Part shown: in pieces, positions 1 to 59,853 of the stretch
How positions within the stretch are numbered: position 1 is the first letter of the stretch
How the letters are laid out: the number at the start of each line of letters is the position of its first letter
From: Chamaelirium japonicum
Lineage: Eukaryota; Streptophyta; Magnoliopsida; Liliales; Melanthiaceae
Assembly: GCA_947650365.1 (NCBI GenBank)
Contig: OX393549.1
Coordinates: 28,673,209 to 28,737,208, forward strand
Reading direction: 5' to 3'
DNA length: 64,000 bases
The notes under the pieces: generated by a model
Database searches by the model: none
What the model saw: the letters and a program-made list of their open reading frames with translations, nothing else
What the model was told of the DNA's origin: nothing
Made by a program: the position numbers and the translations under genes

Positions 1-518
1 TGCGAATGAATTAGAATGGATCGTGCGAATGAATTAGAATGGATCGTACGAATGAATTAGAATGGATATATATGAACGAATAAATTAGAATGGATCATAC
101 GAATGAATTAGAATGGATCGTATGAATGAATTAGAGTGGATAGTGCGAATGAATTAGAATCGATTGTACGAATGAATTAGAATGGATCGTACGAATGAAT
201 TAGAATGGATCATACGAATGAGTAAGAATGGATCGTACGAATGAATTAGAATGGATCGTACGAATGAATTAGAATGGATTGTACGAATAAATTAGAATGG
301 ATACATTCGTCCGAATGAATTAGAATGGATCATACGAATGAGTAAGAATGGATCGTACAAATGAAATAGAATAGATTGTACGAATGAATTAGAATGGATC
401 CTACGAATGAATTAGAATGGATCGTGTGAAAGAATTAGAATGGATTGTATGAATGAATTAGAATGGATCGTATGAATGAATTAGAATGGATCGTACGAAT
501 GAATTCGAATGGATCGTA
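1..518 (+). repeat. F block 1
   Basis: Plus-polarity monomers. Includes a marked unit with TATATATGAACG near 66, also present near 7149 (offset 7083). Ends in class A1 dyad at 497-529. Confidence 0.9.
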
Positions 519-529
519 CGAATTCATTC
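497..529. repeat. Class A1 dyad junction (F to R)
   Basis: GAATGAATTCG at 497-507 and CGAATTCATTC at 519-529 are perfect 11-bp inverted arms around an 11-bp spacer AATGGATCGTA. Array polarity flips here. The same 33 bp recurs at 7557-7589, 15274-15306, 40838-40870, 53274-53306, and with one inner change at 48117-48149 and 61436-61468. Confidence 0.93.
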
Positions 530-3144
530 TAATTCATTCATACAATCCATTCTAATTCTTTCACACGATCCATTCTAATTCATTCGTACGTTCCAATCTA
601 ATTCATTAGCACGATCCATGCTAATTCATTCGTTCGATCAATTCTAATTCATTAGCACGATCCTTTCTAATTCATTCGTACGATCCATTCTAATTTATTC
701 GCACGATCCATTCTAATTCATTCATAGGATCCATTCTAATTCATTCATACGATCTATTCTAATTCTTTCGCACGAATGTATCCATTCTAATTCATTCGCA
801 CAAATGTATCCATTCTAATTCATTCCTACGTTCATTCTAATTCATTCGTACGATCCATTCTAATTCATTCGTACGATCCATTCTAATTCATTCATATGAT
901 CTATTCTAATTCATTCATACAATCCATTCTAATTCTTTCACACGATCCATTCTAATTCATTCGTACGATCCATTCTAATTCATTCGCACAATCCATTCTA
1001 TTTCATTCGTACGATCCATTCTTACTCATTCGTATGATCCATTCTAATTCATTCGCACGAATGTATCCATAATGGATCATACGAATGAGTAAGAATGGAT
1101 CGTCATTCTAATTCATTCGTATGATCCATTCTAATTCATTTGTATCCATTCTATTTCATTCGCACGATCCATTCTAATTCATTCACGCAATCTATTCTAA
1201 TTCATTCGTATGATCCATTCTAATTCATTCGTACGATCCATTCTAATTCATTCATACAATCCATTCTAATTTATTCGCACGAATGTATCCATTCTAATTC
1301 ATTCGTACGATTCATTCTAATTCATTCGTACGATCCATTCTAATTCACTCATACGATCCATTCTAATTCATTCGTACGATGCATTCTAATTCATTCGCTC
1401 GAATGTATCCATTCTAATCCATTCGTACGATCCATTCTAATTCATTCGCATGAATGTAACCATTCTAATTCATTCATTTGATCCATTCTAATTCATTCGT
1501 ACGATCCATTATAATTCATTCGTCTGATCCATTCTAATTCATTCGCACGAATGTATCCATTCTAATTAATTCGTACGATCCATTCTAATTCATTCGTATG
1601 ATCCATTCTAATTCATTCGCACAATCCATTCTATTTCATTCGTACGATCCATTCTTACTCATTGGTACGATCCATTCTAATTCATTCGCACGAATGTATC
1701 CATTCTAATTCATTCGTACGAATCCATTCTTATTCATTCATACAATCTATTCTATTTCATTCGTACGATCCATTCTTACTCATTCGTATGATCCATTCTA
1801 ATTCATTCGGACGAATGTATCCATTCTAATTTATTCGTACGATCCATTCTAATTCATTCGTACGATCCATTCTAATTCATTCGTACGATCCATTCTAATT
1901 CATTCGTCCGATCCATTCTAATTCATTCGCACGAATGTATCCATTCTAATTCATTCGTACGATCCATTCTAATTTATTTATACGATCCATTCTAATTCAT
2001 TCGTAAGATCCATTCTAATTCATTCGTATGATCCATTCTAATTCATTCGTACGATCCATTCTAATTCATTCGCACGAATGTATCCATTCTAGTTAATTCG
2101 TACGATCTATTCTAATTCATTCGCATGGATCGTGTATTCGTACGATCCATTCTAATTCATTCGTAAGATCCATTCTAATTCATTCGTACGATCCATTCCA
2201 ATTCATTCGTACGATCCATTCTAATTCATTCGCACGAATGTATCCATTCTAGTTCATTCATACGATTTATTCTAATTCATTCGCATGGATCGTGCATTCG
2301 TACGATCCATTCTAATTCATTCGTAAGATTCATTCTAATTCATTCGTACGATCCATTCTAATTCATTCGTACGATCCATTCTAATTCATTCGCACGAATG
2401 TATCCATTCTAGTTCATTCGTACGATCCATTCTAATTCATTCGTACGATCCATTCTAATTCATTCATACGATCTATTCTAATTCATTCATACAATCCATT
2501 CTAATTCTTTCACACGATCCATTCTAATTCATTCGTACGATCCATTCTAATTCATTCGTACGATCCATTCTAAATCATTCGTACAATCTATTCTAATTCT
2601 TTCACACGATCCATTCAAATTCATTCGTACGATCCATTCTAATTCATTCGCACGATCTGTTCTTATTCATTCGCACAATCCATTCTAATTCATTCGCACG
2701 AATGTATCCATTCTAATTCATTCGTACGATCCATTCTAATTCATTCGTACGATCCATTCTAATTCATTCGTATGATCCATTCTAATTAATTCGTATGATC
2801 CATTTTAATTCATTCGTACGATCCATTCTAATTCATTCATACAATCCATTCTAATTCATTCGTACGATCCATTCTAATTCACTCATATGATCCATTCTAA
2901 TACATTCATACGATCCATTTTAATTCATTTGCATGAATATATCCATTCTAATTCATTCGTACGATCCATTCTAATTCCTTCGTACGATCCATTCTAATTC
3001 ATTCGTACGATCTATTCTAATTCGTTCGTACGATCCATTCTAATTCATTCGTACGATCCATTATAATTCCTTCGTACGATCCATTCTAATTCATTCATAC
3101 GATCCATTCTAATTCATTCGTACGATCTATTCTAATTCATTCGT
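519..3144 (-). repeat. R block 2
   Basis: Minus-polarity monomers, 2.6 kb. Near-identical in variant order to 7579-10185. Contains a 33-bp F island at 1071-1103 and two tiny flips GCATGGATCGTG near 2124 and 2285 (class C motif). 2650-3144 is also matched by about 17023-17472. Right end is class K2. Confidence 0.9.
1071..1103 (+). repeat. 33-bp F island inside R block
   Basis: Entered through TATCCATAATGGATC (class M2) and left through GATCGTCATTC (reverse of class D). Both edges and about 150-200 bp on each side match the reverse complement of 39360-39920, where the opposite-polarity insert is 169 bp. I infer that the island is an internally deleted inverted copy of that insert. Same island at 8131-8163. 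Confidence 0.85.
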
Positions 3145-5021
3145 ATGAATGGATACATTCATGTGAATGAATTAAAATGTATCGTACGAATGAGTAAGAA
3201 TGGATCGTACGAATGAAATAGAATGGATTGCACGAATGAATTAGAATGGATCGTACGAATGAATTAGAATGGATCGTGTGAAAGAATTAGAATGGATTGT
3301 ATGAATGAATTAGAATGGATCGTACGAATGAATTAGAATGGATCGTACGAAGGAATTAGAATGGATCGTACGAATGAATTAGAATGGATCGTACGAATGA
3401 ATTAGAATGGATCATACGAATTAATTAGAATGGATCGTACGAATGAATTAGAATGGATCGTATGAATGAATTAGAATAGATTGTGCGAATGAATTAGAAT
3501 GGATCGTACGAATGAAATAGAATGGATCGTACGAATGAATTAGAATAGATCGTGCGAATGAATTAGAATGGATCGGACGAATGAATTAGAATAGATCTTA
3601 CGAATGAATTAGAATGGATCGTACGAAGGAACTAGAATGGATCGTACGAATGAATTAGAATGGATATATTCGTGCAAATAAATTAGAATGGATCGTATGA
3701 ATGTATTAGAATGGATACATTCGTGCGAATGAATTAGAATGGATCGGAAGAATGAATTAGAATAGATCGTACGAATGAATTAGAATGGACCGTACGAAGG
3801 AATTAGAATGGATCGTACGAATGAACTAGAATGGATTAGAATGGATCGTACGAATGAATTAGAATGGATCGTATGAATGAATTAGAATGGATCGTACGAA
3901 TGAATTAGAATGGATCGTATGAAGGAATTAGAATGGATCGTACGAATGAATTAGAATGGATATATTCGTGCAAATGAATTAGAATGGATCGTATGAATGT
4001 ATTAGAATGGATACATTCGTGCGAATGAATTAGAATGGATCGGAAGAATGAATTAGAATAGATCGTACGAATGAATTAGAATGGATCGTACGAAGGAATT
4101 AGAATGGATCGTACGAATGAACTAGAATGGATTAGAATGGATCGTACGAATGAATTAGAATGGATCGTATGAATGAATTAGAATGGATCGTACGAATGAA
4201 TTAGAATGGATCATACGAATGAATTAGAATGGATCGTACGAATGAATTAGAATGGATCTTACGAATGAATTAGATTGGATCGTACGAATGAATTAGAATG
4301 GATCGTACGAATAAATTAGAATGGATACATTCGTCCGAATGAATTAGAATGGATCATACGAATGAGTTAGAATGGATCGTGCGAATGAATTAGAATGGAT
4401 CGTACGAATGAATTAGAATGGATACATTTGTGCGAATGAATTAGAATGGATCGTAGGAATGAATTAGAATGGATCGTATGAATGAATTAGAATGGATCGT
4501 ACGAATGAATTAGAATGGATCGTGTGAATGAATTAGAATGGATCGTACGAATGAATTAGAATGGATCGTACGAATGAACTAGAATGGATATATTCGTGCG
4601 AATGAATTAGAATGGATTGTACGAATGAATTAGAATGGATCGTACGAATGAATTAGAATGGATCTTACGAATGAATTAGAATGGATCTTACGAATGAATT
4701 AGAATGGATCGTACGAATGAATTAGAATGGATACATTCGTGCGAATGAATTAGAATGGATCGGACGAATGAATTAGAATGGATCGTACGAATGAATTAGA
4801 ATGGATCGTACGAATGAATTAGAATGGATCGTGCGAATGAATTAGAATGAATCGTGTGAAAGAATTAGAATGTATTGTATGAATGATTTAGAATGGATCG
4901 TACGAATGAATTAGAATGGATCTTACGAATGAATTAGAATGGATCGTACGAATGAATTAGAATGGATCATACGAATGAATTAGAATCGATACATTCGTGC
5001 GAATGAATTAGAATGGATCGT
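3145..5021 (+). repeat. F block 3
   Basis: Plus-polarity monomers, several of 28 bp. Left edge has GAATGGATACATTCATGTG (K2), shared with 17473. Recurs as 17473-19091 with about 260 bp less. Contains a 296-bp internal duplication (see next entry). Right edge is GTGCAC (class B1). Confidence 0.9.
3625..4215 (+). repeat. 296-bp tandem duplication within F block 3
   Basis: Marker units repeat at a fixed offset of 296 bp: TGGATATATTCGTGC at 3661 and 3957, and ACTAGAATGGATTAGAATGG at 3825 and 4121. The second marker contains a 10-bp partial-unit scar (GATTAGAATG). The related segment at 17.9-18.3 kb keeps only one copy of that scar (18042). Confidence 0.85.
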
Positions 5022-6678
5022 GCACGAATGTATCCATTCTAATTCATTCGTACGATCCATTCAAATTCATTAATATGATCCATTCTAATTCATTCGTACG
5101 ATCCATTCTAATTCATATGCACAAAGGTATCCATTCTAATCCATTCGTAGGATCCATTCTAATCCATTCGTACGATCCATTCTAATTCATTCGTACGATC
5201 CATTCTAATTCATTCGTACAATCCATTCTAATTCATTCGTATGATCCATTCTAACTCATTCGGTGGATCCATTCTAATTCATTCGTACGATCCATTCTAA
5301 TTCATTCCCACGATCCAATCTAATTTATTCATACGATCCATTCTAATTCATTCGTACGATCTATTCTAATTCATTCGCACGAATGTAACCATTCTAATTC
5401 ATTCATACGATTCATTCTAATTCATTCGTATGTGCTATTCTAATTCATTCGTACGATCCATTCTAATTCATTCACACGAATATATCCATTCTAATTCATT
5501 CATACGATCCATTCTAATTCATTCGTACGATCCATTCTAATTCACTCATACGATCCATTCTAATACATTCATACGATCCATTCTAATTCATTTGCACGAA
5601 TATATCCATTCTAATTCATTCGTACGATCCATTCTAATTCCTTCGTACGATCCATTCTAATTCATTCGTACAATCTATTCTATTTCATTCGTACGATCCA
5701 TTCTTACTCATTCGTACGATCCATTCTAATTCATTCGTCCGATCCATTCTAATTCATTCGCACGAATGTATCCATTCTAATTCAGTCGTTCGATCAATTC
5801 TAATTCATTAGCACGATCCATTCTAATTCATTCGTACGATCCATTCTAATTCATTCGCATGATCCATTCTAATTCATTCATAGGATCCATTCTAATTCAT
5901 TCATACGATCTATTCTAATTCTTTCGCACGAATATATCCATTCTAATTCATTCGCACGAATGTATCCATTCTAATTCATTCGTACGATCCATTCTAATTC
6001 ATTCGTACGATCCATTCTAATTCATTAATATGATCCATTCTAATTCATTCATACGATCCGTTCTAATTCATATGGACAAAGGTATCCATTCTAATCAATT
6101 CATAGGATCCATTCTAATCCATTCGTACGATCCATTCATCATTCGTACGATCTCATTCGCTCGAATGTATCCATTCTAATCCATTCATACGATCCATTCT
6201 AATCCATTCGTATGATCCATTCTAATTCATTCGCATGAATGTAACCATTCTAATTCATTTATTTGATCCATTCTAATTCATTCGTACGATCCATTCTAAT
6301 TCATTCGTCCGATCCATTCTAATTCATTCGCACGAATGTATCCATTCTAATTCATTCGTACGATCCATTCTAATTCATTCGTACGATCCATTCTAATTCA
6401 TTCGTAAGATCCATTCTAATTCAATCGTACGATCCATTCTAATTCATTCGTACGATCCATTCTAATTTATTCGCACGAATGTATCCATTCTAGTTCATTC
6501 GTACGATCCATTCTAATTCATTCGTACGATCCATTCTAATTCATTCGCACGATCCATTCTAATTCATTCGTACGATCAATTCTAATTCATTCGTGCAATC
6601 CTGCTATTTTATTCGTATGATCCATTCTTACTCATTTGTACGATCCATTCTAATTCATTCACACGAATGTATCCATTC
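5022..6678 (-). repeat. R block 4
   Basis: Minus polarity. Its first 240 bp match 19092-19300, including the rare unit with CATATGCACAAAGG (near 5104; again near 6070). The right end is GTATCCATTCGTAC, a class K1 flip. Confidence 0.88.
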
Positions 6679-6887
6679 GTACTAATGAATTAGAATAGAT
6701 TATACGAATGAATTAGAATGGATCGTACGAAGGAATTAGAATGGATCGTACGAATGAATTAGAATGGATCGTACGAAGGAATTAGAATGGATCGTATGAA
6801 TGAATTAGAATGGATCGTACGATTGAATTAGAATGGATCATACGAATGAGTAAGAATGAATCGTATGAATGAATTAGATTGGATCGT
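6679..6887 (+). repeat. F block 5
   Basis: Plus polarity. With blocks 6 and 7 it matches about 55.2-55.6 kb (offset about 48.5 kb). Right edge is a 16-bp perfect palindrome TGGATCGTACGATCCA at 6880-6895. Confidence 0.88.
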
Positions 6888-6909
6888 ACGATCCATTCTA
6901 ATTCGTTAG
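6888..6909 (-). repeat. R block 6, about one monomer
   Basis: A single reversed unit between two F blocks, ending ATTCGTTAGCATGG. The same single-unit flip is at 55403-55425, so it was copied with its flanks. Confidence 0.85.
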
Positions 6910-7578
6910 CATGGATCGTGCTAATGAATTAGAATGGAATATACGAATGAATTAGAATGGATCGTAGAATGGATCGTACGAATGAATTAGAATGAATTAG
7001 AATGGATCGTACAAATGAATTAGAATAGATCATAGGAATGAATTAGAATGGATCGTGCAAATGAATTAGAATGGATACATTCGTGCGAATGAATTAGAAT
7101 GGATCGTGTGAATGAATTAGAATGGATCGTACGAATGAATTAGAATGGATATATATGAACGAATAAATTAGAATGGATCATACGAATGAATTAGAATGGA
7201 TCGTATGAATGAATTAGAGTGGATAGTGCGAATGAATTAGAATCGATTGTACGAATGAATTAGAATGGATCGTACGAATGAATTAGAATGGATCATACGA
7301 ATGAGTAAGAATGGATCGTACGAATGAATTAGAATGGATCGTACGAATAAATTAGAATGGATACATTCGTCCGAATGAATTAGAATGGATCATACGAATG
7401 AGTAAGAATGGATCGTACGAATGAAATAGAATAGATTGTACGAATAAATTAGAATGGATCCTACGAATGAATTAGAATGGATCGTGTGAAAGAATTAGAA
7501 TGGATTGTATGAATGAATTAGAATGGATCGTATGAATGAATTAGAATGGATCGTACGAATGAATTCGAATGGATCGTA
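6910..7578 (+). repeat. F block 7
   Basis: Plus polarity. From about 7083 it repeats block 1 unit for unit. Contains GGATCGTAGAATGG, a truncated unit also seen near 55480. Ends in the A1 dyad 7557-7589. Confidence 0.9.
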
Positions 7579-10190
7579 CGAATTCATTCTAATTCATTCA
7601 TACAATCCATTCTAATTCTTTCACACGATCCATTCTAATTCATTCGTACGCTCCATTCTAATTCATTAGCACGATCCATGCTAATTCATTCGTTCGATCA
7701 ATTCTAATTCATTAGCACGATCCATTCTAATTCATTCGTACGATCCATTCTAATTTATTCGCACGATCCATTCTAATTCATTCATAGGATCCATTCTAAT
7801 TCATTCATACGATCTATTCTAATTCTTTCGCACGAATGTATCCATTCTAATTCATTCGCACGAATGTATCCATTCTAATTCATTTGTACGATCCATTCTA
7901 ATTCATTCGTACGATCCATTCTAATTCATTCGTACGATCCATTCTAATTCATTCATATGATCTATTCTAATTCATTCATACAATCCATTCTAATTCTTTC
8001 ACACGATCCATTCTAATTCATTCGTACGATCCATTCTAATTCATTCGCACAATCCATTCTATTTCATTCGTACGATCCATTCTTACTCATTCATATGATC
8101 CATTCTAATTCATTCGCACGAATGTATCCATAATGGATCATACGAATGAGTAAGAATGGATCGTCATTCTAATTCATTCGTATGATCCATTCTAATTCAT
8201 TTGTATCCATTCTATTTCATTCGCACGATCCATTCTAATTCATTCACGCAATCTATTCTAATTCATTCGTATGATCCATTCTAATTCATTCGTACGATCC
8301 ATTCTAATTCATTCATACAATCCATTCTAATTTATTCGCACGATTCATTCTAATTCATTCGTACGATTCATTCTAATTCATTCGTATGATCCATTCTAAT
8401 TCACTCATACGATCCATTCTAATTCATTCGTACGATCCATTCTAATTCATTCGCTCGAATGTATCCATTCTAATCCATTCGTACGATCCATTCTAATTCA
8501 TTCGCATGAATGTAACCATTCTAATTCATTTATTTGATCCATTCTAATTCATTCATACGATCCATTATAATTCATTCGTCCGATCCATTCTAATTCATTC
8601 GCACGAATGTATCCATTCTAATTAATTCGTACGATCCATTCTAATTCATTCGTATGATCCATTCTAATTCATTCGCACAATCCATTCTATTTCATTCGTA
8701 CGATCCATTCTTACTCATTGGTACGATCCATTCTAATTCATTCGCACGAATGTATCCATTCTAATTCATTCGTACAAATCCATTCTTATTCATTCATACA
8801 ATCTATTCTATTTCATTCGTACGATCCATTCTTACTCATTCGTATGATCCATTCTAATTCATTCGGACGAATGTATCCATTCTAATTTATTCGTACGATC
8901 CATTCTAATTCATTCGTACGATCCATTCTAATTCATTCGTACGATCCATTCTAATTCATTCGTCCGATCCATTCTAATTCATTCGCACGAATGTATCCAT
9001 TCTAATTCATTCGTACGATCTATTCTAATTTATTCATACGATCCATTCTAATTCATTCGTAAGATCCATTCTAATTCATTCGTACGATCCATTCTAATTC
9101 ATTCGTACGATCCATTCTAATTCATTCGCACGAATGTATCCATTCTAGTTCATTCGTACGATCTATTCTAATTCATTCGCATGGATCGTGTATTCGTACG
9201 ATCCATTCTAATTCATTCGTAAGATTCATTCTAATTCATTCGTAGGATCCATTCTAATTCATTCGTACGATCCATTCTAATTCATTCGCACGAATGTATC
9301 CATTCTAGTTCATTCGTACGATCCATTCTAATTCATTCGTACGATCCATTCTAATTCATTCATACGATCTATTCTAATTCATTCATATAATCCATTCTAA
9401 TTCTTTCACACGATCCATTCTAATTCATTCGTACGATCCATTCTAATTCATTCGTACGATCCATTCTAAATCATTCGTATAATCTATTCTAATTCTTTCA
9501 CATGATCCATTCTAATTCATTCGTATGATCCATTCTAATTCATTCACACGATCCATTTTAATTCATATGCACAAAGGTATCCATTCTAATCCATTCGTAG
9601 GATCCATTCTAATTCATTCGCACGATCCATTCTAATTCATTCGTACGATCCATTCTAATTCATTCGTACGATCCATTCTAATTCATTCGTAAGATCATTT
9701 CTAATTCATTCGTACGATCCATTCTAATTCATTCGTACGATCCATTCTAATTCATTCGCACGAATGTATCCATTCTAGTTCATTCATACGATCCATTCTA
9801 ATTCATTCGTACGATCCATTCTTATTCATTCGTATGATCCATTCTAATTAATTCGTATGATCCATTCTAATTCATTCGTACGATCCATTATAATTCATTC
9901 ATACAATCCATTCTAATTCATTCGTACGATCCATTCTAATTCACTCATACGATCCATTCTAATACATTCATACGATCCATTCTAATTCATTTGCACGAAT
10001 ATATCCATTCTAATTCATTCGTACGATCCATTCTAATTCATTCGTACGATCTATTCTAATTCATTCGTACGATCCATTCTAATTCATTCGTACGATCCAT
10101 TCTAATTCCTTCGTACGATCCATTCTAATTCATTCGTACGATCCATTCTAATTCATTCGTACAATCTATTCTAATTCATTCATACGAATG
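7083..10190. repeat. Higher-order repeat A, copy 2
   Basis: Second copy of 1-3150. The spacing of shared markers changes by single monomers, consistent with small unequal exchanges after duplication. The block order diverges after the K2 junction. Confidence 0.9.
7579..10185 (-). repeat. R block 8
   Basis: Direct copy of R block 2: same order of variants, same 33-bp F island (8131-8163) and same class C micro-flip near 9180. The offset drifts from 7083 to about 7039, i.e. net loss of about two monomers. Confidence 0.9.
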
Positions 10191-10437
10191 GATACATTCG
10201 TGTGAATGAATTAGAATGGATCGTACGAATGAGTAAGAATGGATCGTACGAATGAAATAGAATGGATTGCACGAATGAATTAGAATGGATCGTGCGAATG
10301 AATTAGAATGGATCGTACGAATGAATTAGAATGGATACATTTGTGCGAATGAATTAGAATGGATCATACGAATGAATTAGAATGGATCGTATGAATGAAT
10401 TAGAATGGATCGTGCGAACGAATTTGAATGGATCGTA
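10186..10437 (+). repeat. F block 9
   Basis: Plus polarity. Entered through CATACGAATGGATACATTCG (K2). The right edge resembles dyad A1, but the left arm is GAATTTG, so the symmetry is degraded. Confidence 0.87.
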
Positions 10438-11603
10438 CGAATTCATTCTAATTCATTCATACAATCCATTCTAATTCTTTCACACGATCCATTCTAATTT
10501 ATTCGTACGTTCCATTCTAATTCATTAGCACGATCCATGCTAATTAATTCGTTCGATCAATTCTAATTCATTAGCACGATCCATTCTAATTCATTCGTAC
10601 GATCCATTCTAATTCATTTGCACGATCCATTCTAATTCATTCATAGGATCCATTCTAATTCATTCATACGATCTATTCTAATTCTTTTGCACGAATGTAT
10701 CCATTCTAATTCATTCGCACGAATGTATCCATTCTAATTCATTCGTACGATCCATTCTAATTCATTCGTACGATCCATTCTAATTCATTCATACGATCCA
10801 TTCTAATTCCTTCATACGATCCATTCTAATTCATTCGTACGATCTATTCTAATTCATTCGTACGATCCATTCTAATTCATTCATACGATCCATTCTAATT
10901 CATTCGTACGATCTATTCTAATTCATTCGTACGATCCATTCTAATTTCATTCGTACGATCCATTCTAATTCATTCGCTCGAATGTATCCATTCTAATCCA
11001 TTCGTACGATCCATTATAATCCATTCGTACGATCCATTCTAATTCATTCGCATGAATGTAACCATTCTAATTCATTCATTTGATCCATTCTAATTCATTC
11101 GTACGATCCATTCTAATTCATTCGTCCGATCCATTCTAATTCATTCGCACGAATGTATCCATTCTAATCCATTCGTAAGATCCATTCTAATTCATTCGTA
11201 CGATCCATTCTAATTCATTCGTCCGATCCATTCTAATTCATTAATATGATCCATTCTAATTCATTCGTACGATCCATTCTAATTCATTCATTTGATCCAT
11301 TATAATTCATTCGTACGATCCATTCTAATTCATGCGTACAATCCATTCTATTTCATTCGTACGATCCATTCTTACTCATTCGTATGATCCATTCTAATTC
11401 ATTCGTACGATCCATTCTAATTCATTCGTACGATCCATTCTAATTCATTCGCACGAATGTATCCATTCTAGTTCATTCGTACGATCCATTCTAATTCATT
11501 CGTATGATCCATTCTAATTCATTCGCACGATCCATTCTAATTCATTCGTACGATCCATTCTAATTCATTCATACGATCGATTCTAATTCTAATTCATTCT
11601 GTT
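10438..11603 (-). repeat. R block 10
   Basis: Minus polarity. The first 300 bp follow block 2/8 variants. Ends in an otherwise unseen stretch TTCTGTTTTAATGGATC near 11598, a one-off switch. Confidence 0.87.
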
Positions 11604-12039
11604 TTAATGGATCATACGAATGAGTAAGAATGGATCGTACGAATGAAATAGAATGGATTGTGCGAATGAATTAGAATGGATCGTACGAATGAATTAGAAT
11701 GGATCGTACGAATGAATTAGAATGGATCGTACGAATGAATTAGAATGGATAGATTCGTGCGAATGAATTAGAATGGATACATTCGTGCGAAAGAATTAGA
11801 ATAGATCGTATGAATGAATTAGAATGGATCCTATGAATGAATTAGAATGGATCGTGCGAATGAATTAGAATGGATCCTACGAATGAATTAGAATGGATCG
11901 TGCTAATGAATTAGAATTGATCGAACAAATGAATTAGCATGGATCGTGCTAATGAATTAGAATGGAACGTACTAATGAATTAGAATGGATCGTGTGAAAG
12001 AATTAGAATGGATTGTATGAATGAATTAGAATGAATTCG
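11604..12039 (+). repeat. F block 11
   Basis: Plus polarity. Contains the triplet of variants GTGCTAATG, ATTGATCGAAC, AGCATGGATCGTGC also found in blocks 27, 36 and 68. Ends in class A2 dyad. Confidence 0.88.
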
Positions 12040-15295: not shown

Positions 15296-15355
15296 CGAAT
15301 TCATTCTAATTCATTCATACAATCCATTCTAATTCTTTCACACGATCCATTCTAA
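15296..15355 (-). repeat. R block 16, short
   Basis: About 60 bp of reversed units between dyad A1 and TCTAATGGATCG, a sharp switch within the core rather than in the linker. Confidence 0.85.
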
Positions 15356-48138: not shown

Positions 48139-50890
48139 TGAATTCATTCTAATTCATTCATACAATCCATTCTAATTCTTTCACACGATCCATTCTAATT
48201 CATTCGTACGTTCCATTCTAATTCATTAGCACGATCCATGCTAATTCATTCGTTCGATCAATTCTAATTCATTAGCACGATTAATTCTAATTCATTCGTA
48301 CGATCCATTCTAATTCATGCGCACGATCCATTCTAATTCATTCATAGGATCCATTTTAATTCATTCATACGATCTATTCTAATTCTTTCGCACGAATGTA
48401 TCCATTCTAATTCATTCGCACGAATGCATCCATTCTAATTCATTCGTACGATCCATTCTAATTCATTCGTACGATCCATTCAAATTCATTCATATGATCT
48501 ATTCTAATTCATTCATACAATCCATTCTAATTCTTTCACACGATCCATTCTAATTCATTCGTACGATCCATTCTAATTCATTCGCACAATCCATTCTATT
48601 TCATTCGTACGATCCATTCTTACTCATTGGAACGATCCATTCTAATTCATTCGCACGAATGTATCCATTCTAATTCATTCATACGAATCCATTCTAATTC
48701 ATTCGTACAATCCATTCTATTTCATTCGTACGATCCATTCTTACTCATTCGTATGATCCATTCTAATTCATTCGCACGAATGTATCCATTCTAATCCATT
48801 CGTACGATCCATTCTAATCCATTCGTACGATCCATTCTAATTCATTCGCATGAATGTAACCATTCTAATTCATTCATTTGATCCATTCTAATTCATTTGA
48901 TCCATTCTAATACATTTGCACGAATGTATCCATTCTAAACCATTCATACGATCCATTCTAATTTATTCGTACGATTCATTCTAATTCTTTCGTAAGATCC
49001 ATTCTAATTCATTCGTATGACCCATTCTAATTCATTCGTACGATCCATTCTAATTCATTCGCACGAATGTATCCATTCTAGTTCATTCGTACGATCCATT
49101 CTAATTCATTCGTACGATCCATTCTAATTCATTCGCACGATCCATTCTAATTCATTCGTACGATCCATTCTAATTCATTCGCGCGAATGTATCCATTCTA
49201 ATTCATTCGTACGATCCATTCTAATTCATTCGTACGATCCATTCTAATTCATTCGCACGATTCATTCTAATTCATTCGTACGATCCATTCTAGTTCATTC
49301 ATACGATCCATTCTAATTCATTCGTACGATCCATTCTAATTCATTCGCACAAATGTATCCATTCTAATTTATTCGTACGACCCATTCTAATTCATTCGCA
49401 CGATCCATTCTAATTCATTCTAATTCATTCGTACGATCTATTCTAATTCATTCGTACGATCCATTCTTACTCATTCGTATGATCCATTCTAATTCATTCG
49501 TACGATCCATTCTAATTCATTCGCACGAATGTAACCATTCTAATTCATTCGTACGATCCATTCTAATTCATTCGCACAAATGTATCTATTCTAATTCATT
49601 CATACGATCCATTCTAATTCATTCGCACGATCCATTCTAATTCATTCGTACGATCCATTCTAATTCTTTCACACGATCCATTCTAATTCATTCGTTCGAT
49701 CCATTCTAATTCATTCGCACGATCCATTCTAATTCATTCATAGGATCCATTCTAATTCATTCATACGATCTATTCTAATTCTTTCGCACGAATGTATCCA
49801 TTCTAATTCATTCGCACGAATGTATCCATTCTAATTCATTCGTACGATCCATTCTAATTCATTCGTACGATTCATTCTAATTCATTCGTACGATCTATTC
49901 TAATTAATTCGTATGATCCATTCTAATTTATTCGTACGATCCATTCTAATTCATTCATACAATCCATTCTAACTCATTCGCACGAATGTATCCATTCTAA
50001 TTAATTCGTACGATCCAGTCTAATTCATTCGTATGATCCATTCTTATTCATTCGCACGATCCAGTCTAATGGATTCGCACGATCCATTCTAATTCATTCG
50101 CACGAATGTATTCATTCTAATTCATTCGTACGATCCATTCTAATTCATTAATATGAGCCATTCTAATTCATTCGTACGATCCATTCTAATTCATATGCAC
50201 AAAGGTATCCATTCTAATCCATTCGTAGGATCCATTCTAATCCATTCGTATGATCCATTCTAATTCATTCGTAAGATCCATTCTAATTCATTCGTACGAT
50301 CCATTCTAATTCATTCGTACGATCCATTCTAATTCATTCGCACGAATGTATCCATTCTAGTTCATTCGTACGATCCATTCTAATTCATTCGTACGATCCA
50401 TTCTAATTCATTCGCACGAATGTATCCATTCTAGTTCATTCGTACGATCCATTCTAGTTCATTCGTACGATCCAGTCTAATTCATTCATATGATCCATTC
50501 TAATTAATTCGTATGATCCATTCTAATTCATTCGTACGATCCATTCTAATTCATTCATACAATCCATTCTAATTCATTCGCACGAATGTATCCATTCTAA
50601 TTAATTCGTACGATCCATTCTAATTCATTCATATGATCCATTCTAATTCATTCGAACGAATCCATTCTAATTCATTCATACAATCTATTCTATTTCATTC
50701 GTAAGATCCATTCTAATTCATTCGTAAGATCCATTCTAATTCATTCGCACGAATGTATCCATTCTAGTTCATTCGTACGATCCATTCTAATTCATTCGTA
50801 CGATCCATTCTAATTCATTCATACGATCTATTCTAATTTATTATTACAATCCATTCTAATACATTTGTACGAATGAATTAGAATGGATCG
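47200..50890. repeat. Higher-order repeat C, copy 1
   Basis: Matches 60540-64000. Offsets: 13342 at GCGAGTGAATTAG (47571/60913), 13319 up to about 48661, 13054 after 48926, 13077 at TTATTACAAT (50841/63918). The 23-bp steps are single monomers. Confidence 0.92.
48139..50866 (-). repeat. R block 57
   Basis: Longest minus block (2.7 kb). Contains the CATATGCACAAAGG unit near 50194. Ends ATACATTTGTACGAATG after the unusual TTTATTATTAC. Confidence 0.9.
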
Positions 50891-53295
50891 TACGAATGAA
50901 TTAGAATAGATCGTACGAATGAATTAGAATGGATCGTACGTAGGAATTAGAATGGATCGTACGAATGAATTAGAATGGATATATTCGTGCAAATGAATTA
51001 GAATGGATCGTATGAATGAATTAGAATGCATTGTATGAATGAATTAGAATGGATCGTATGAATGAATTAGAATGGATCGTACGAATGAATTAGAATGGAT
51101 ACATTCGTGCGAATGAATTAGAATGGATACATTCGTGCGAAAGAATTAGAATAGATCGTATGAATGAATTAGAATGGATCCTATGAATGAATTAGAATGG
51201 ATCGTGCGAATGAATTAGAATGGATCGTACGAATGAATTAGAATGGATCGTGTGAAAGAATTAGAATGGATCGTACGAATGAATTAGAATGGATCGTGCG
51301 AATGAATTAGAATGGATCGTACGAATGAATTAGAATGGATCGTGTGAAAGAATTAGAATGGATCGTACGAATGAATTAGAATGGATCGTGCGAATGAATT
51401 AGAATGGATTGTACGAATGAATTAGAATGGATACATTTGTGCGAATGAATTAGAATGGTTACATTCGTGCGAATGAATTAGAACGGATCGTACGAATGAA
51501 TTAGAATGGATATATTCGTGCAAATGAATTAGAATGGATCGTATGAATGTATTAGAATGGATCGTATGAGTGAATTAGAATGGATCGTGCGAATGAATTA
51601 GAATGGATTGTGCGAATGAATTAGAATGGATCGTACGAATGAATTAAAATGGATCGTGTGAAAGAATTAGAATGGATTGTATGAATGAATTAGAATAGAT
51701 CGTATGAATGAATTAGAATGGATCGTACGAATGAATTAGAATGGATCGTACGAATGAACTAGAATGGATACATTCGTGCGAATGAATTAGAATGGATCGT
51801 ACTAATGAATTAGAATGGATCGTACGAGTGAATTAGAACGGATCTTACGAATGAATTAGAATGGATCGTATAAATGCACGATCCATGCGAATGAATTAGA
51901 ATAGATCGTACGAATGAACTAGAATGGATACATTCGTGCGAATGAATTAGAATGGATCATACGAATGAATTAGAATGGATCGTACGAATGAATTAGAATA
52001 GATCCTACGAATGAATTAGAATGGATCGTATGAATGAATTAGAATGGATCGTACGAATGAATTAGAATGGATACATTCGTGTGAATGAATTAGAATGGAT
52101 CGGACGAATGAATTAGAATGGATCGTACGAATGAATTAGAATGGATCGTATGAATGAATTAGAATGGATCGTACGAATAAATTAGAATGGATACATTCGT
52201 CCGAATGAATTAGAATGGATCATACGAATGAGTAAGAATGGATCGTACGAATGAAATAGAATAGATTGTTCGAATGAATTAGAATGGATTCGTACGAATG
52301 AATTAGAATGGATACATTTGTGCGAATGAATTAGAATGGATCGTACCAATGAGTAAGAATGGATCGTATGAATGAAATAGAATGGATTGTGCGAATGAAT
52401 TAGAATGGATCATACGAATGAATTAGAATGGATCATACGAATTAATTAGAATGGATACATTCGTGCGAATGAATTAGAATGGATTGTATGAATGAATTAG
52501 AATGGATCGTACGAATGAATTAGAATGGATCAAACGAATGAATTATAATGGATACATTCGTGCGAATAAATTAGAATGGATTGTGCGAATGAATAAGAAC
52601 ATATCGTGCGAATGAATTAGAATGGATCGTACGAATGAATTAGAATGGATACATTTGTGCGAATGAATTAGAATGGATCGTACGAATGAATTAGAATGGA
52701 TCGTATGAATGAATTAGAATGGATCGTACGAATGAATTAGAATGGATTGTACTAATGAATTAGAATGGATCGTACGAATGAATTAGAATGGATCATACGA
52801 ATGAACTAGAATGGATATATTCGTGTGAATGAATTAGAATGGATCGTATGAATGAATTAGAATGGATCGTACGAATGAATTAGAATGGATCTTACGAATG
52901 AATAAGAATGTATCATACGAATGAATTAGAATGGATCGTACGAATGAATTAGAATGGATACATTCGTGCGAATGAATTAGAATGGATCGGACGAATGAAT
53001 TAGAATGGATCATACGAATGAATTAGAATGGATCGTACGAATGAATTAGAATGGATCGTACGAATAAATTAGAATGGATACATTCGTCCGAATGAATTAG
53101 AATGGATCATACGAAGGAGTAAGAATGGATCGTATGAATGAAATAGAATAGATTGTACGAATGAATTAGAATGGATCCTACGAATGAATTAGAATGGATC
53201 GTGTGAAAGAATTAGAATGGATTGTATGAATGAATTAGAATGGATCGTATGAATGAATTAGAATGGATCGTGCGAATGAATTCGAATGGATCGTA
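50867..53295 (+). repeat. F block 58
   Basis: Plus polarity, 2.4 kb, with a class C micro-flip GCACGATCCATGC near 51877. Ends in dyad A1 (53274-53306). Confidence 0.89.
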
Positions 53296-53577
53296 CGAAT
53301 TCATTCTAATTCATTCATACAATCCATTCTAATTCTTTCACACGATCAATTCTAATTCATTCGTAGGATCCATTCTAATTCATTCGTACAATATATTCTA
53401 TTTCATTCGTACGATCCATTCTTACTCATTCGTATGATCCATTCTAATTCATTCAGACGAATGTATCCATTCTAATTTATTCGTACGATCCATTCTAATT
53501 CATTCGTACGATCCATTCTAATTCATTCGTACGATCCATTCTAATTCATTCGTCCGATCCATTCTAATTCATTCGCA
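53296..53577 (-). repeat. R block 59
   Basis: Minus polarity, variant order like the start of block 47. Switch at CATTCGCACGAATG, which is itself the 28-mer dyad. Confidence 0.88.
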
Positions 53578-55402
53578 CGAATGAATTAGAATGGATCGTA
53601 CGAATGAACTAGAATGAAATAGAATGGATTGTGCGAATGAATTAGAATGGATCGTACGAATGAATTAGAATGGTTCGTGTGAAAGAATTAGAATGGATTG
53701 TATGAATGAATTAGAATAGATCGTATGAATGAATTAGAATGGATCGTACGAATGAATTAGAATGGATCGTACGAATGAACTAGAATGGATACATTCGTGC
53801 GAATAATTTAGAATGTATCGTACGAATGAATTAGAATGGATCGTACGAATGAATTAGAATGGATCTTACGAATGAATTAGAATGGATCGTACGAATGCAC
53901 GATCCTTGCGAATGAATTAGAATAGATCGTACGAATGAACTAGAATGGATACATTCGTGCGAATGAATTAGAATGGATCGTACGAATGAATTAGAATGGA
54001 TCGTATGAATGAATTAGAATGGATCGTACGAATGAATTTGAATGGATCGTACGAATGAATTAGAATGGATCGTACGAATGAATTAGAATGGATACATTCG
54101 TGCGAATGAATTAGAATGGATATATTCGTGCGAAAGAATTAGAATAGATCGTATGAATGAATTAGAATGGATCCTATGAATGAATTAGAATGGATCGTAC
54201 GAATGAATTAGAATGGATCGTGCTAATGAATTAGAATTGATCGAACGAATGAATTAGAATGGATACATTTGTGCGAATGAATTAGAATGGATCGTACGAA
54301 TGAGAAAGAATGGATCGTACGAATGAAATAGAATAGATCGTACGAATGAATTAGAATGGATCGTACGAATGAATTAGAATGGATATATTCGTGCAAATGA
54401 ATTAGAATGGATCGTATGAATGTATTAGAATGGATCGTATAAGTGAATTAGAATGGATCGTATGAATGAATTAGAATGGATCGTATGAATGAATTAGAAT
54501 GGATACATTCGTGTGAATGAATTAGAATGGATCGTATGAATGAATTAGAATAGATTTTGTGAATGAGTTAGAACTGATCGTACGAATGAATTAGAATGGA
54601 TACATTCGTACGAATGAATTAGAATGGATTGTATGAATGAATTAGAATGGATCGTACGAATGAATTAGAATGGATCGTATGAGCGAATTAGAATGGATAC
54701 GAAGGAATTAGAATGGATCGTACGAAGGAATTAGAATGGATTATACGAATGAAATAGAATGGATCGTACGAAGGAATTAGAATGGATCGTACGAAGGAAT
54801 TAGAATGGATCGTACGAAGGAATTTGAATGAATCGTACGAATGAATTAGAATGGATATATTCGTGCAAATGAATTAGAATGGATCATATGAATGAATTAG
54901 AATGGATCGTATGAGTGAATTAGAACGGATAGTACGAATGAAGTAGAATGGATCGTATGAATGAATTAGAATGGATACATTCGTGCGAATGAATTAGAAT
55001 GGATCGTATGAATGAATTAGAATAGATTATGCGAATGAATTAGAATGGATCGTACGAATGAATTAGAATGGATACATTCGTGCGAATAAATTAGAATGGA
55101 TTGTATGAATGAATTAGAATGGATCGTACAAATGAATTAGAATAGATCGTACGAATGAATTAGAATAGATTGCGCGAATGAATTAGAATGGATCATACAA
55201 ATGAATTAGAATGGATCGTACGAAGGAATTAGAATGAATCGTACGAATGAATTAGAATGGATCATACGAATGAATTAGAATGGATCGTACGAAGGAATTA
55301 GAATGGATCGTACGAATTAATTAGAATGGATCGTACGATTGAATTAGAATGGATCATACGAATGAGTAAGAATGGATCGTATGAATGAATTAGATTGGAT
55401 CG
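53578..55402 (+). repeat. F block 60
   Basis: Plus polarity with a micro-flip GCACGATCCTTGC near 53898 and the GAAGGAATTAG stretch at 54.69-54.83 kb. From about 55.2 kb it matches 6.7 kb. Confidence 0.88.
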
Positions 55403-55425
55403 TATGATCCATTCTAAATCATTAG
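55403..55425 (-). repeat. R block 61, one monomer
   Basis: Counterpart of 6888-6909, with CTAAATCATTAG in place of CTAATTCGTTAG. Confidence 0.85.
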
Positions 55426-55669
55426 CATGGATCGTGCTAATGAATTAGAATGGAATATACGAATGAATTAGAATTGATCGTAGAAAGGATCGTACGAATG
55501 AATTAGAATGAATTAGAATGGATCGTACGAATGAATTAGAATAGATCATAGGAATGAATTAGAATGGATCGTGCAAATGAATTAGAATGGATACATTCGT
55601 ACGAATGAATTAGAATGGATCGTACGAATGAATTAGATTGGATCGTACGAATGAATTAGAATGGATCGT
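55426..55669 (+). repeat. F block 62
   Basis: Counterpart of the start of block 7, ending at the 42-bp palindrome 55649-55690. Confidence 0.88.
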
Positions 55670-55690
55670 ACGATCCATTCTAATTCATTC
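55649..55690. repeat. 42-bp perfect palindrome at F-to-R switch
   Basis: Twenty-one bases starting GAATGAATTAG and ending GGATCGT are followed directly by their reverse complement, centred between 55669 and 55670. Longest uninterrupted palindrome noticed in the window. Confidence 0.93.
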
Positions 55691-55822
55691 ATACAATCCA
55701 TTCTAATTCATTTGCACGAATGTATCCATTCTAATCCATTCGTACGATCCATTCTAATCCATTCGTACGATCCATTCTAATTCATTCGCATGAATGTAAC
55801 CATTCTAATTCATTCACACGAT
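55670..55822 (-). repeat. R block 63, short
   Basis: Minus polarity, resembling the start of block 51. Ends CACACGATCGTATG. Confidence 0.87.
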
Positions 55823-56204
55823 CGTATGAATTAGAATGGATACATTCGTGCGAATGAATTAGAATGGATCGTGCGAATCCATTAGACTGGATCATGCGAA
55901 TGAATAAAAATGGATCATACGAATGAATTAGAATGGATCGTACGAATTAATTAGAATGGATACATTCGTGCGAATGAATTAGAATGGATTGTATGAATGA
56001 ATTAGAATGGATCGAATGAATGAATTAGAATGGATCATATGAATTAATTAGAATGGATCATACGAATGAATTAGAATGGATCGTACGAATGAATTAGAAT
56101 GGATCGTATGAATGAACTAGAATGAATCGTACGAATGAACTAGAATAGATATATTCGTGCGAATGAATTAGAATGGATCGTACGAATGAATTAGAATGGA
56201 TCGT
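55823..56204 (+). repeat. F block 64
   Basis: Plus polarity, with ATTAATTAGAATGG variants like block 56. Ends CGTACGATTCATTC, as at 14036. Confidence 0.87.
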
Positions 56205-57324
56205 ACGATTCATTCTAATTCATTCGTACGATCCATTCTAATACATTCGTACGATTCATGCTAATTCATTCGCATGATCCATTCTAATTCATTCATACGA
56301 TCCATTCTTATTCATTCATACGATCCATTCTAATTTATTCACACAATCCATTCTAATTCATTCGTACAATCCATTCTAATTCATTCGTATGATCCATTCT
56401 AACTCATTCGGTGGATCCATTCTAATTCATTCGTACGATCCATTCTAATTCATTCCCACGATCTATTCTAATTTATTCGTACGATCCATTCTAATTCATT
56501 CGTACGATCTATTCTAATTTATTCGCACGAATGTAACCATTCTAATTCATTCATACAATTCATTCTAATTCATTCGTATGAGCTATTCTAATTCATTCGC
56601 ACGATCCATTCTAATTCATTCGTACGATACATTGTAATTCATTCATACAATCCATTTAGATTCATTCGCACAAATGTATCCATTCAAATTCATTCGTACG
56701 ATCCAGTCTAATTCATTCGTACGATCCATTCTAATTCATTCGCATGAATATATCCATTCTAATTCTTTCGTACGATGCATTCTAATTCATTTGTACGATC
56801 CATTCTAATTCATTCATTTGATCCATTCTAATTCATTCGTACGATCCATTCTAATTCATTCGTCTGATCCATTCTAATTCATTCGCACGAATGTATCCAT
56901 CCTAATTCATTCGTACGATCCATTCTAATTCATTCATACGATCCATTCTATTTCATTCATACAATGCATTCTAATTCTTTCACACGATCCATTCTAATTC
57001 ATTCGTACGATCCATTCTAATTCATTCGTACAATCCATTCTATTTCATTTGTGCGATCCATTCTTACTCATTCGTATGATCCATTCTAATTCATTCGTAC
57101 GATCCATTCTAATTCATTTGTACGATCCATTCTAATTCATTCGTACAATCCATTTAGATTCATTCGCACAAATGTATCCATTCAAATTCATTCGTACGAT
57201 CCAGTCTAATTCATTCGTACGATCCATTCTAATTCATTCGCACGAATATATCCATTCTAATTCTTTCGTACGATGCATTCTAATTCATTCGTACGATCCA
57301 TTCTAATTCATTCGTACGATCCAT
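56205..57324 (-). repeat. R block 65
   Basis: Minus polarity. Matches block 14. The TTTAGATTCATTCGC marker occurs twice (56653 and 57151, 498 bp apart), a local duplication. Ends CCATTTACGAATG. Confidence 0.88.
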
Positions 57325-57649
57325 TTACGAATGAAGTAGAATGGATCGTATGAATGAATTAGAATGGATACATTTGTGCGAATGAATTAGAATGGATCGT
57401 TTGAATGAATTAGAATAGATTGTGCAAATGAATTAGAATGGATCGTACGAATGAATTAGAATGGATACATTCATGCGAATAAATTAGAATGGATTGTATG
57501 AATGAATTAGAATGGATCGTACGAATGAATTAGAATGGATCGTACGAATGAATTAGAATAGATTGCGCGAATGAATTAGAATGGATCGTGCGAATGAAAT
57601 AGAATGGATACAAATAAATTAGAATGGATCATACGAATGAATTAGAATG
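57325..57649 (+). repeat. F block 66
   Basis: Copy of about 39240-39564 (offset 18086), ending in class D. Confidence 0.88.
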
Positions 57650-57818
57650 ACGATCCATTCCTACTCATTCGTATGATCTATTCTAATTTATTCGCATGAA
57701 TGTATCCATTCTAATTCATTCGTACGTCTAATTCATTCGTACGGTCCATTCTAATTCATTCGCACAATCCATTCTATTTCATTCGTACGATCCATTCTTA
57801 CTTATTCGTATGATCCAT
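57650..57818 (-). repeat. R block 67, 169 bp
   Basis: Copy of R block 45 with its CGTACGTCTAATTC scar; classes D and M1 at the ends. Confidence 0.88.
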
Positions 57819-58369
57819 TATGGATACATTCGTGCGAATGAATTAGAATGGATCATACGAATGAGTAAGAATGGATCGTACGAATGAAATAGAATAGATT
57901 GTGCGAATGAATTAGAATGGATCGTACGAATGAATTAGAATGGATCGTGTGAATGAATTAGAATGGATTGTATGAATGAATTAGAATAGATCGTATGAAA
58001 GAATTAGAATGGATCGTACGAATGAATTAGAATGGATCGTACAAATGAATTAGAATGGATCGTACGAATGAATTATAATGGATACATTCGTGCGAATGAA
58101 TTAGAATGGATAGATTCGTGCGAAAGAATTAGAATAGATCGTATGAATGAATTAGAATGGATCCTATGAATGAATTAGAATGGATCGTGCGAATGAATTA
58201 GAATGGATCGTACGAATGAATTAGAATGGATTGTGCTAATGAATTAGAATTGATCGAACGAATGAATTAGCATGGATCGTGCTAATGAATTAGAATGGAA
58301 CGTACGAATGAATTAGAATGGATCGTGTGAAAGAATTAGAATGGATTGTATGAATGAATTAGAATGAAT
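57819..58369 (+). repeat. F block 68
   Basis: Plus polarity from class M1 to dyad A2 (58362-58394). Confidence 0.89.
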
Positions 58370-59853
58370 TCGTACGATCCATTCGAATTCATTCGCACGA
58401 TCCATTCTAATTCATTCATACGATCCATTCTAATTCATTCATACAATCCATTCTAATTCTTTCACACGATCCATTCTAATTCATTCGTAGGATCCATTCT
58501 AATTCATTCGTACAATCTATTCTATTTCATTCGTACGATCCATTCTTACTCATTCATATGATCCATTCTAATTCATTCGGACGAATGTATCCATTCTGAT
58601 TTATTCGTACGATCCATTCTAATTCATTCGTACGATCCATTCTAATTCATTCATACGATCCATTCTAATTCGTTCGTCCGATCCATTCTAATTCATTTGC
58701 ACGAATGTATCCATTCTAATTCATTCGTACGATCCATTCTAATTCATTCGTACGATCCATTCTAATTCATTCGTAAGATCCATTCTAATTCATTCGTAAG
58801 ATCCATTCTAATTTATTCGTACGATCCATTCTAATTCATTCGCACAAATGTATCCATTCTAGTTCATTCGTACGATCCATTCTAATTCATTCGTACGATC
58901 CATTCTAATTCATTCGCACGATCCATTCTAATTCATTCGTACGATCCATTCTAATTCATTCATACGATCCATTCTAATTCATTCGTACGATCCATTCTAA
59001 TTCATTCGCACGATATATTCTAATTCATTCGTACGATCCATTCTAATTATTTCACACGATCCATTCTAATTCATTTGCACGATCCATTCTAATTCATTCG
59101 TACGATCCATTATAATTATTTCACACGATCCATTCTAATTCATTCATACGATCCATTCTAATTCATTCCCACGATCCATTCTAATTCATTCGTACGATCC
59201 ATTCTAATTCATTCATACGATCCATTCTAATTCATTCGCACGATCCATTCTAATTCATTCGGACAAATGTATCCATTCTAATTCATTCTTACGATCCATT
59301 CTAATTCATTCGCACGATCCATTCTAATTCATTCATACGATCCATTCTAATTCTTTCGCACGATCTGTTCTTATTCATTCGCACAATCCATTCTAATTCA
59401 TTCGCATGAATGTATCCATGCTAATTCATTCGTACGATCCATTCTAATTCATTCGTACGATCCATTCTAATTCATTCGTATGATCCATTCTAATTAATTC
59501 GTATGATCCATTCTAATTCATTCGTACGATCCATTCTAATTCATTCATACAATCCATTCTAATTCATTCGTACGATCCATTCTAATTCACTCATACGATC
59601 CATTCTAATACATTCATACGATCCATTCTAATTCATTTGCACGAATATATCCATTATAATTCATTCATACGATCCTTTCTAATTCCTTCGTACGATCCAT
59701 TCTAATTCATTCGTACGATCTATTCTAATTCATTCGTACGATCCATTCTAATTCATTCGTATGATCCATTCTAATTCCTTCGTACGATCCATTCTAATTC
59801 ATTCGTACGATCCATTCTAATTCATTCGTACAATCTATTCTAATTCATTCGTA
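58370..59853 (-). repeat. R block 69
   Basis: Minus polarity. The last 500 bp follow blocks 2 and 20 and lead into K2. Confidence 0.89.

What the first reader, a model, noticed from the sequence alone, without database searches (positions are those of the whole stretch)
497..58394. One F-to-R junction found in both orientations (A1 and A2)
Seen: the 33-bp dyad GAATGAATTCG-11-CGAATTCATTC occurs 7 times with spacer AATGGATCGTA and 5 times with spacer TACGATCCATT. The flanks of A2 copies (12029, 21112, 23447, 31935, 58362) are the reverse complement of the A1 flanks (497, 7557, 15274, 40838, 53274). Inference: one founding switch was then copied directly and inverted.
Basis: seen in the sequence. 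Interest (0 to 1): 0.78.

Follow-up and report, generated by a model that had tools for sequence, protein, structure and literature searches.

The report
One inherited satellite flip, copied genome-wide
In the centromere repeats of what is probably a plant with many centromere blocks per chromosome, one spot where the repeat turns round on itself has been copied thousands of times in both directions, so it can serve as a tracer of how such centromeres spread.

Summary
The 33-bp dyad occurs 10 times with perfect arms (5 A1, 5 A2) and twice with one arm mismatch. The window is almost pure 23/28-bp satellite matching Chio1/Chio2, the centromeric satellite of holocentric Chionographis japonica. 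After reverse-complementing A2, the left (F) arms of all ten agree at 95-100% over 100 bp and 87-98% over 300 bp; the 300-bp background is 84.6 +/- 2.7%. Right arms form two lineages plus one early turn-back.

The exact dyad occurs 13,507 times genome-wide, 6,777 and 6,730 in the two orientations. Of 60 sampled copies with both flanks measured, 43 share both. The tree is star-like with orientation unclustered. So: one origin, spread in both orientations.

The right arm copies the left arm reversed, over 250 bp in lineage II and about 60-66 bp in lineage I, pointing to a fold-back founder. F-to-R families break at CGTACGA more than expected (18 of 20, p 0.001); R-to-F families do not.

Mixed orientation is published; the sections I read trace no single junction. 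The inverting step is unresolved.

The parts
1..64000 (.). 23-bp / 28-bp satellite array (Chio1/Chio2 type), about 75-77 alternating strand blocks
   Evidence: 559 exact 23-mers in the window
497..529 (+). A1 dyad, R-arm lineage I
7557..7589 (+). A1 dyad, lineage I
10416..10448 (+). diverged A1 copy, lineage I R arm, F arm exchanged
12029..12061 (-). A2 dyad, lineage I
15274..15306 (+). A1 dyad; array turns back to F 55 bp after the switch
21112..21144 (-). A2 dyad; R arm like lineage II for about 196 bp (self-palindrome 92%), then different
   Evidence: rated 'other' by the 250-bp rule
23447..23479 (-). A2 dyad, lineage I
31935..31967 (-). A2 dyad with C-to-T in the spacer, lineage I
40838..40870 (+). 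A1 dyad, lineage II: R arm = reverse complement of own F arm (94.5% over 272 bp)
48117..48149 (+). A1 copy with CGTATG, lineage I
53274..53306 (+). A1 dyad, lineage II: self-palindrome 95.5% over 292 bp
58362..58394 (-). A2 dyad, lineage I
61436..61468 (+). A1 copy with CGTATG, lineage I
42642..42673 (+). related junction: same F arm (98%) with the diagnostic C, but a CGTACG pivot palindrome as core
1071..1103 (+). 33-bp F block between an R-to-F and an F-to-R switch, also at 8132-8164; its R-to-F core is the family with 7,533 exact copies genome-wide

Best explanation
The A1/A2 dyad is one inherited strand-switch junction in the centromeric Chio1/Chio2 satellite of (most likely) Chionographis japonica. 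A growing strand or broken end in an F-oriented array folded back on itself at or just after the self-complementary CGTACG, with a loop of about two monomers (roughly 46-57 nt), and continued on its own complement. This joined an F arm to its own reverse complement, with the 33-bp dyad at the turn. The junction and its flanks were then amplified with the satellite into more than 13,500 exact copies in many satellite blocks, now present about equally in both orientations. Later exchanges replaced parts of the right arm (the main lineage I breaks away after about 66 bp) or of the left arm. Shown: the site, the shared flanks, the genome-wide copies and their even orientation, the palindromic arms of lineage II. 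Inferred: the fold-back step, that lineage II is the older form, the species, and the route of inversion (inverted duplication, or recombination between the F and R arms, which would flip the junction without leaving a new switch).
For: F arms of A1 and reverse-complemented A2 well above background. 13,507 exact copies, 6777/6730, reversed-pattern control 0. A 2-kb query across the junction at 497 matches stretches of about 1-1.3 kb that span it at 92-97% on C1, C3, C4 (968 bp, 95%), C7, C8 and several short contigs (only 40 of 4873 candidates scored). Sampled copies with lineage I or II arms also lie on C2 and C5. 43 of 60 sampled copies share both flanks at 0.95 or more with the copy at 58362. 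Orientation unclustered on a star-like tree. R arm equals the own F arm reversed: 5 of 5 lineage II copies 0.944-0.980 over 250 bp, while lineage I copies under the same offset search give about 0.78-0.88; median 0.950 for R-arm positions 67-266 in lineage II, 0.824 in lineage I; positions 1-60 agree in both, 0.983 and 0.967 (alignment). F-to-R families break in CGTACGA: 18 of 20, max-statistic p 0.001; 10 of 11 families absent from the window, p 0.006.
Against: The five lineage II copies descend from one event (two of them, 53274 and L018, are identical over the tree region), so the fold-back rests on one palindrome; the lowest value, 0.944, is only just above the background maximum of 0.940, and the own-palindrome value was the best of 40 offsets. 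The first 60 bp alone is weak (4% of random in-phase pairs match as well). 13 of 61 copies have other or unmeasured R arms and 12 of 61 an F arm under 0.95. No pair showed an in-place flip with collinear flanks on both sides (0 of 127; one side in 3), but that test had little power. A general palindrome test over all switches gave no excess, though its background held homologous arms and is not usable. By the rule used the A family itself is one of the two F-to-R families counted as NOT breaking in CGTACGA, because its commonest placement (32 of 58) is on the mirror side of the dyad; 22 of 58 are placed at CGTACGA. The clustering was noticed in the window before it was tested.
Confidence: 0.8

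Rival explanations
1. Recurrent switching: the same dyad arises again and again because CGTACG and the GAATGAATT/AATTCATTC hairpin make it a hotspot; shared flanks reflect later homogenisation.
For: F-to-R families cluster on CGTACGA. L035 holds a similar core (CGTACG-AATTCATTC) in another context, a separate small inversion. The pivot palindrome has 2,241 exact sites.
Against: 43 of 60 copies share both flanks, including sequence variants visible; A is one dominant family, 58 of 155 sampled F-to-R switches.
Confidence: 0.08
2. In-place flipping (compatible with the single origin above): copies were amplified in one orientation and then inverted by recombination between the F array on one side and the R array on the other.
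For: Such a flip leaves no new strand switch and leads to the even ratios seen for A, the main R-to-F family and B. Orientation is unclustered on the tree.
Against: 0 of 127 opposite pairs had collinear flanks on both sides (weak test). Random orientation of whole blocks would also give even ratios over the genome.
Confidence: 0.45
3. The dyad is kept by selection, as a hairpin or cruciform used by the centromere, rather than passively amplified.
For: As single-stranded DNA the 33-nt dyads fold at -8.9 and -8.8 kcal/mol (z -4.3, -3.9) and 101 nt round 53274 at -30.1 (z -8.5), against -4.2 (z -0.1) for one ordinary 101-nt stretch. The published work notes dyad symmetries in Chio.
Against: Many other switch families exist without this dyad. 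Conservation of the dyad against its flanks was not tested; no CENH3 data could be used.
Confidence: 0.1
4. Assembly artefact: inverted contigs or collapsed repeats create the switches.
For: Satellite arrays are hard to assemble (general knowledge).
Against: Thousands of copies, in many contigs, with graded divergence and shared variants; the published assembly of this species is from HiFi reads.
Confidence: 0.02

Closest known systems
Chio1/Chio2 centromeric satellite of Chionographis japonica (Kuo et al. 2023, PMC10264360; abstract, passages, sections 8 and 14 seen)
   Same: 23-bp and 28-bp monomers differing by a 5-bp indel and one substitution; megabase blocks, several per chromosome; mixture of forward and reverse arrays; dyad symmetries; a higher-order cluster (CL73)
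   Different: In the parts I saw, orientation is described as a mixture; no individual junction is traced, counted or explained.
Chama satellite of Chamaelirium luteum (Kuo et al. 2025, PMC12722358; abstract, sections 7 and 8 seen)
   Same: Shares the 9-mer TTCGTACGA with Chio
   Different: 60-bp monomer; arrays consistently oriented according to that paper, which contrasts them with the frequently alternating Chio arrays.
Fold-back inverted duplications with a spacer (Hermetz et al. 2014, PMC3907307; abstract seen)
   Same: Inverted arms separated by a spacer that corresponds to the fold-back loop, short inverted sequence at the turn
   Different: There: large, non-recurrent human rearrangements with dicentric intermediates. 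Here: a loop of tens of bases inside a satellite, then amplified.

Membership tests
Chio1/Chio2 satellite | 23-bp and 28-bp monomers differing by 5 bp and one substitution | tested here: met
   AATGGATCGTACGAATGAATTAG and 28-bp units of the form AATGGATACATTCGTGCGAATGAATTAG; definition (the published monomer letters are in a figure and were not seen)
Chio1/Chio2 satellite | contains TTCGTACGA | tested here: met
   reverse monomer ...CATTCGTACGATCC...; shared 9-mer stated
Chio1/Chio2 satellite | several megabase-scale blocks per chromosome of a plant genome near 1.5 Gb, about 16% satellite | tested here: met
   1,518,659,071 bases; listed pattern places on C1 fall near 1.4-3.3, 10.3-10.8, 17-18, 27-31, 40-41, 49-52, 65-67, 75-76 and 134-136 Mb (lists capped at 100); RuBisCO large chain; 2,169,535 exact monomers scaled by 559 per 64 kb gives about 248 Mb
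Chio1/Chio2 satellite | binds CENH3 | not testable with these tools
   no ChIP data held
Chio1/Chio2 satellite | the record is named Chionographis japonica | not testable with these tools
Fold-back inverted duplication | one arm is the reverse complement of the other beyond chance | tested here: met
   lineage II 0.944-0.980 over 250 bp against background 0.846 +/- 0.027, maximum 0.940 of 1500 pairs over 300 bp; not seen beyond about 66 bp in lineage I
Fold-back inverted duplication | spacer and short inverted sequence at the turn | tested here: met
   R arm copies the F arm from about 32 bp upstream of the dyad; the self-complementary CGTACG lies at the turn (sequence)
Fold-back inverted duplication | initiating double-strand break | not testable with these tools
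   sequence alone

The most novel reading that the evidence does not exclude
The whole strand mosaic of these holocentromere units was built from a small set of founder switches. F-to-R switches are made by fold-back at CGTACG, the core of the 9-mer that Chio shares with Chama, while R-to-F switches are secondary joins. The founder junctions are heritable tracers that record how about 100 centromere units were seeded from one another.
Probability: 0.4. Interest if true: 0.72.

Novelty: new variant of a known kind. Interest (0 to 1): 0.52.

Why it matters
How satellite DNA spread to about 100 new centromere units in a holocentric plant is an open question; the published paper weighs gene conversion between units, inversions and circular-DNA reintegration. 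A single-origin junction that carries an orientation and has over 13,500 exact copies is a marker on which a copy-by-copy genealogy between units and chromosomes can be built. The contrast between F-to-R and R-to-F breakpoints would separate the event that creates inversions from events that merely join pieces.

Tried and rejected
Quasi-palindrome correction of A to C in the left arm (GAATTAG to GAATTCG): attractive at first because 13 of 14 C-bearing monomers in the window sit at F-to-R switches. Weakened because unswitched F arrays with a close F arm and the same C exist in the sample (4 with C, 1 with T; most also share a neighbouring GTGCG variant, whose print was cut), and the unswitched 34-mer with the C occurs 14,678 times genome-wide (its arms were not checked). 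The C more simply predates the fold-back, though recombinants are not excluded. A second switch type, B, carries the same C and a related F arm (94-97%) and has 4,008 exact copies.

The A-version of the core (480 copies) as the uncorrected ancestor: of 7 sampled, 3 have lineage I right arms (two of these with F150 of 0.98 or more, the third, in L032, 0.88), 1 (L033) has other flanks, and 3 (L035) lie in an independent small inversion. Not an ancestor group. G or T at this base occurs 510 times.

An orientation domain on C1 1.69-3.0 Mb, suggested by the list: rejected, because an exact minus copy at L012 4322 (C1:2,490,322) is missing from that list; the list is not complete for that strand.

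General palindrome test over all switches: no excess seen, but void, since its background held homologous arms; not used. First junction clustering at 90% single linkage merged unlike types; replaced. Flip search by BLAST timed out; replaced by rare 25-mers, low power. Literature: the listings (20 of 125 papers shown) showed no title or abstract start about this junction; supplements were not readable.

Rows dropped: L001-L004 and L007 (overlap the window or other loci), L009 (N), L029-L031 (chloroplast) in sampled counts from then on; five non-satellite loci; 13 of 61 copies (short flanks or F arm below 0.93); switches with a block under 40 bp. L005 and L019 overlap by 738 bp. L018 resembles the window, and L005, L006, L008 and L019 resemble each other, so copies are not independent events. 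Lineage was decided by a 0.92 cut on 250 bp.
Full report
What the window is. The 64-kb window is almost entirely a 23-bp tandem repeat, AATGGATCGTACGAATGAATTAG, with a minority of 28-bp units. It splits into about 75-77 strand blocks. It lies at C1:28,673,209-28,737,208 of a 1.52-Gb genome that holds RuBisCO large-chain genes on many short contigs. The species name is inferred; the genome record bears none.

The observation. All ten coordinates are correct. Ten dyads have perfect arms (5 A1, 5 A2, one of these with a changed spacer base) and two more have one arm mismatch; none is expected by shuffling. A thirteenth, diverged copy is at 10416.

One origin. Outside the dyad, F arms of A1 and reverse-complemented A2 copies are 0.95-1.00 identical over 100 bp and mostly 0.92-0.98 over 300 bp (23447: 0.87-0.90), against an in-phase 300-bp satellite background of 0.846 with standard deviation 0.027 and a maximum of 0.940 in 1500 pairs. 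The diverged copy 10416 keeps only its right arm (0.97 to lineage I over 100 bp). Right arms agree within lineage I (0.94-0.98 over 300 bp) but not between lineages; 15274 turns back after 55 bp. Blocks across the junction align over up to 3.4 kb in direct and 1.1 kb in inverted orientation. Genome-wide the exact dyad occurs 6,777 times forward and 6,730 times reverse, the reversed-pattern control 0 times. In the window plus 19 loci I classified 61 copies with up to 3 mismatches in the dyad: 43 have the lineage I right arm, 5 lineage II, 13 other or unmeasured. Compared with the copy at 58362, 49 of 61 have an F arm of 0.95 or more over 150 bp, 49 of 60 a right arm of 0.95 or more over 60 bp, 43 of 60 both. 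A tree of 48 of these is star-like (38 of 43 inner branches unsupported, median end branch 0.012) and orientation needs 15 changes against 16.2 in shuffles. Among 155 F-to-R switches of the sample, this family is the largest: 58, in the window and 18 loci, split 25/33 by relative orientation.

The founding event. Aligned with the reversed F arm, the right arm begins in both lineages as a copy of the F arm starting about 32 bp upstream of the dyad. In lineage II this continues: 0.944-0.980 over 250 bp in 5 of 5 copies, median 0.950 over positions 67-266. In lineage I it holds for about 60-66 bp (median 0.967 over positions 1-60, 36 copies) and then drops to 0.824, the level of unrelated satellite. 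The simplest reading is a fold-back with a loop of about two monomers, then loss of the palindrome in lineage I by exchange. Since all copies descend from one event, this is one observation; the 60-bp part alone would be weak (4% of random pairs are as good), and the 250-bp values are the best of 40 offsets.

Where switches happen. I grouped F-to-R switches of the sample into 20 families and R-to-F switches into 29 (blocks of at least 40 bp). 18 of 20 F-to-R families have a breakpoint in the seven bases CGTACGA, against about half for simulated random joints; with any 7-bp window allowed, p is 0.001, and for families absent from the window 10 of 11, p 0.006. Among multi-copy families it is 7 of 8, p 0.04. 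The A family itself falls outside by this rule, because most of its copies (32 of 58) are placed on the mirror side of the dyad; 22 of 58 are placed at CGTACGA. R-to-F families show nothing of the kind (11 of 29; multi-copy 4 of 18). I read F-to-R switches as the primary fold-backs at a self-complementary hexamer and R-to-F switches as secondary joins; this is inference from small numbers, and the pattern was noticed in the window before it was tested.

The diagnostic C. The left arm of the dyad differs from the ordinary monomer by A to C, which makes the dyad perfect. A templated correction was considered, but F arrays with the same C and no switch exist in the sample, the unswitched C-bearing 34-mer occurs 14,678 times in the genome, and a second switch type (B, 4,008 copies) starts from a related C-bearing arm. 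The C probably came first.

How copies came to lie both ways. Because the junction is flanked by F on one side and R on the other, recombination between the two sides would turn it round without leaving a new switch. This would give the even ratio seen for A, for B (1983/2025) and for the main R-to-F family (3725/3808). Random orientation of whole blocks could also do so. A search for in-place flips found 0 of 127 pairs with both flanks collinear and 3 with one, with little power.

Scale. 2.17 million exact monomers and 559 per 64 kb in the window suggest about 248 Mb of satellite, in line with the published 16-17%. At that scale the window, with 9 exact dyads, is about 2.6 times richer in them than average.

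Known and new. That Chio arrays mix orientations, and that a higher-order cluster exists, is published, as is the contrast with the uniformly oriented Chama arrays. The sections I read do not trace any junction, and the listings of six literature searches showed no paper that does; supplements were not readable.

Noticed in passing
window 23739-23865: 127-bp GC-rich non-satellite insert inside the array, holding two copies of GAGAGTTTTGACTCCCAGTATTTCA; no exact match in the 26 other loci searched.
   Followed up: partly
L018 (C1:28,737,209-28,747,208): The 10 kb after the window carries A copies identical in the tree region to those at 53274 and 58362, 4.7 kb apart against 5.1 kb: suggests a recent large direct duplication.
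   Followed up: partly
L017 (C1:28,663,209-28,673,208): Satellite begins about 3 kb before the window; the 7 kb before that has none, the 10 kb as a whole is 53% GC: the window starts near an array edge or a large insertion.
   Followed up: partly
L017, L019, L021, L025, L032: B type: a small inverted insertion GAATTCGAATGGATCG-CATGATCCATTCGAAT-AGAATGG, 4,008 exact copies genome-wide in both orientations.
   Followed up: partly
C1 1.69-2.67 Mb (list): The main R-to-F family occurs as inverted pairs exactly 378 bp apart (6 pairs among the 100 listed places), suggesting a fixed palindromic unit.
   Followed up: no
C1 2.09-2.96 Mb (list): The unswitched C monomer recurs at repeated spacings (996 bp several times), nearly all listed on one strand: perhaps a locally homogenised higher-order array. 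Lists may be incomplete for one strand.
   Followed up: no
window 6884-6905, 55400-55421 and, inverted, 43726-43742: Pieces of 16-21 bp of opposite strand inside longer blocks; the family is found in 13 sources of the sample: a small inversion of its own.
   Followed up: partly
L035 (C4:92,635,001-92,645,000): An independent small inversion gives nearly the same core (CGTACG-AATTCATTC) in another context, three copies in 10 kb.
   Followed up: partly
short contigs of G000, e.g. L029-L031: 131 matches to the RuBisCO large chain on short contigs: the assembly keeps many chloroplast contigs.
   Followed up: no
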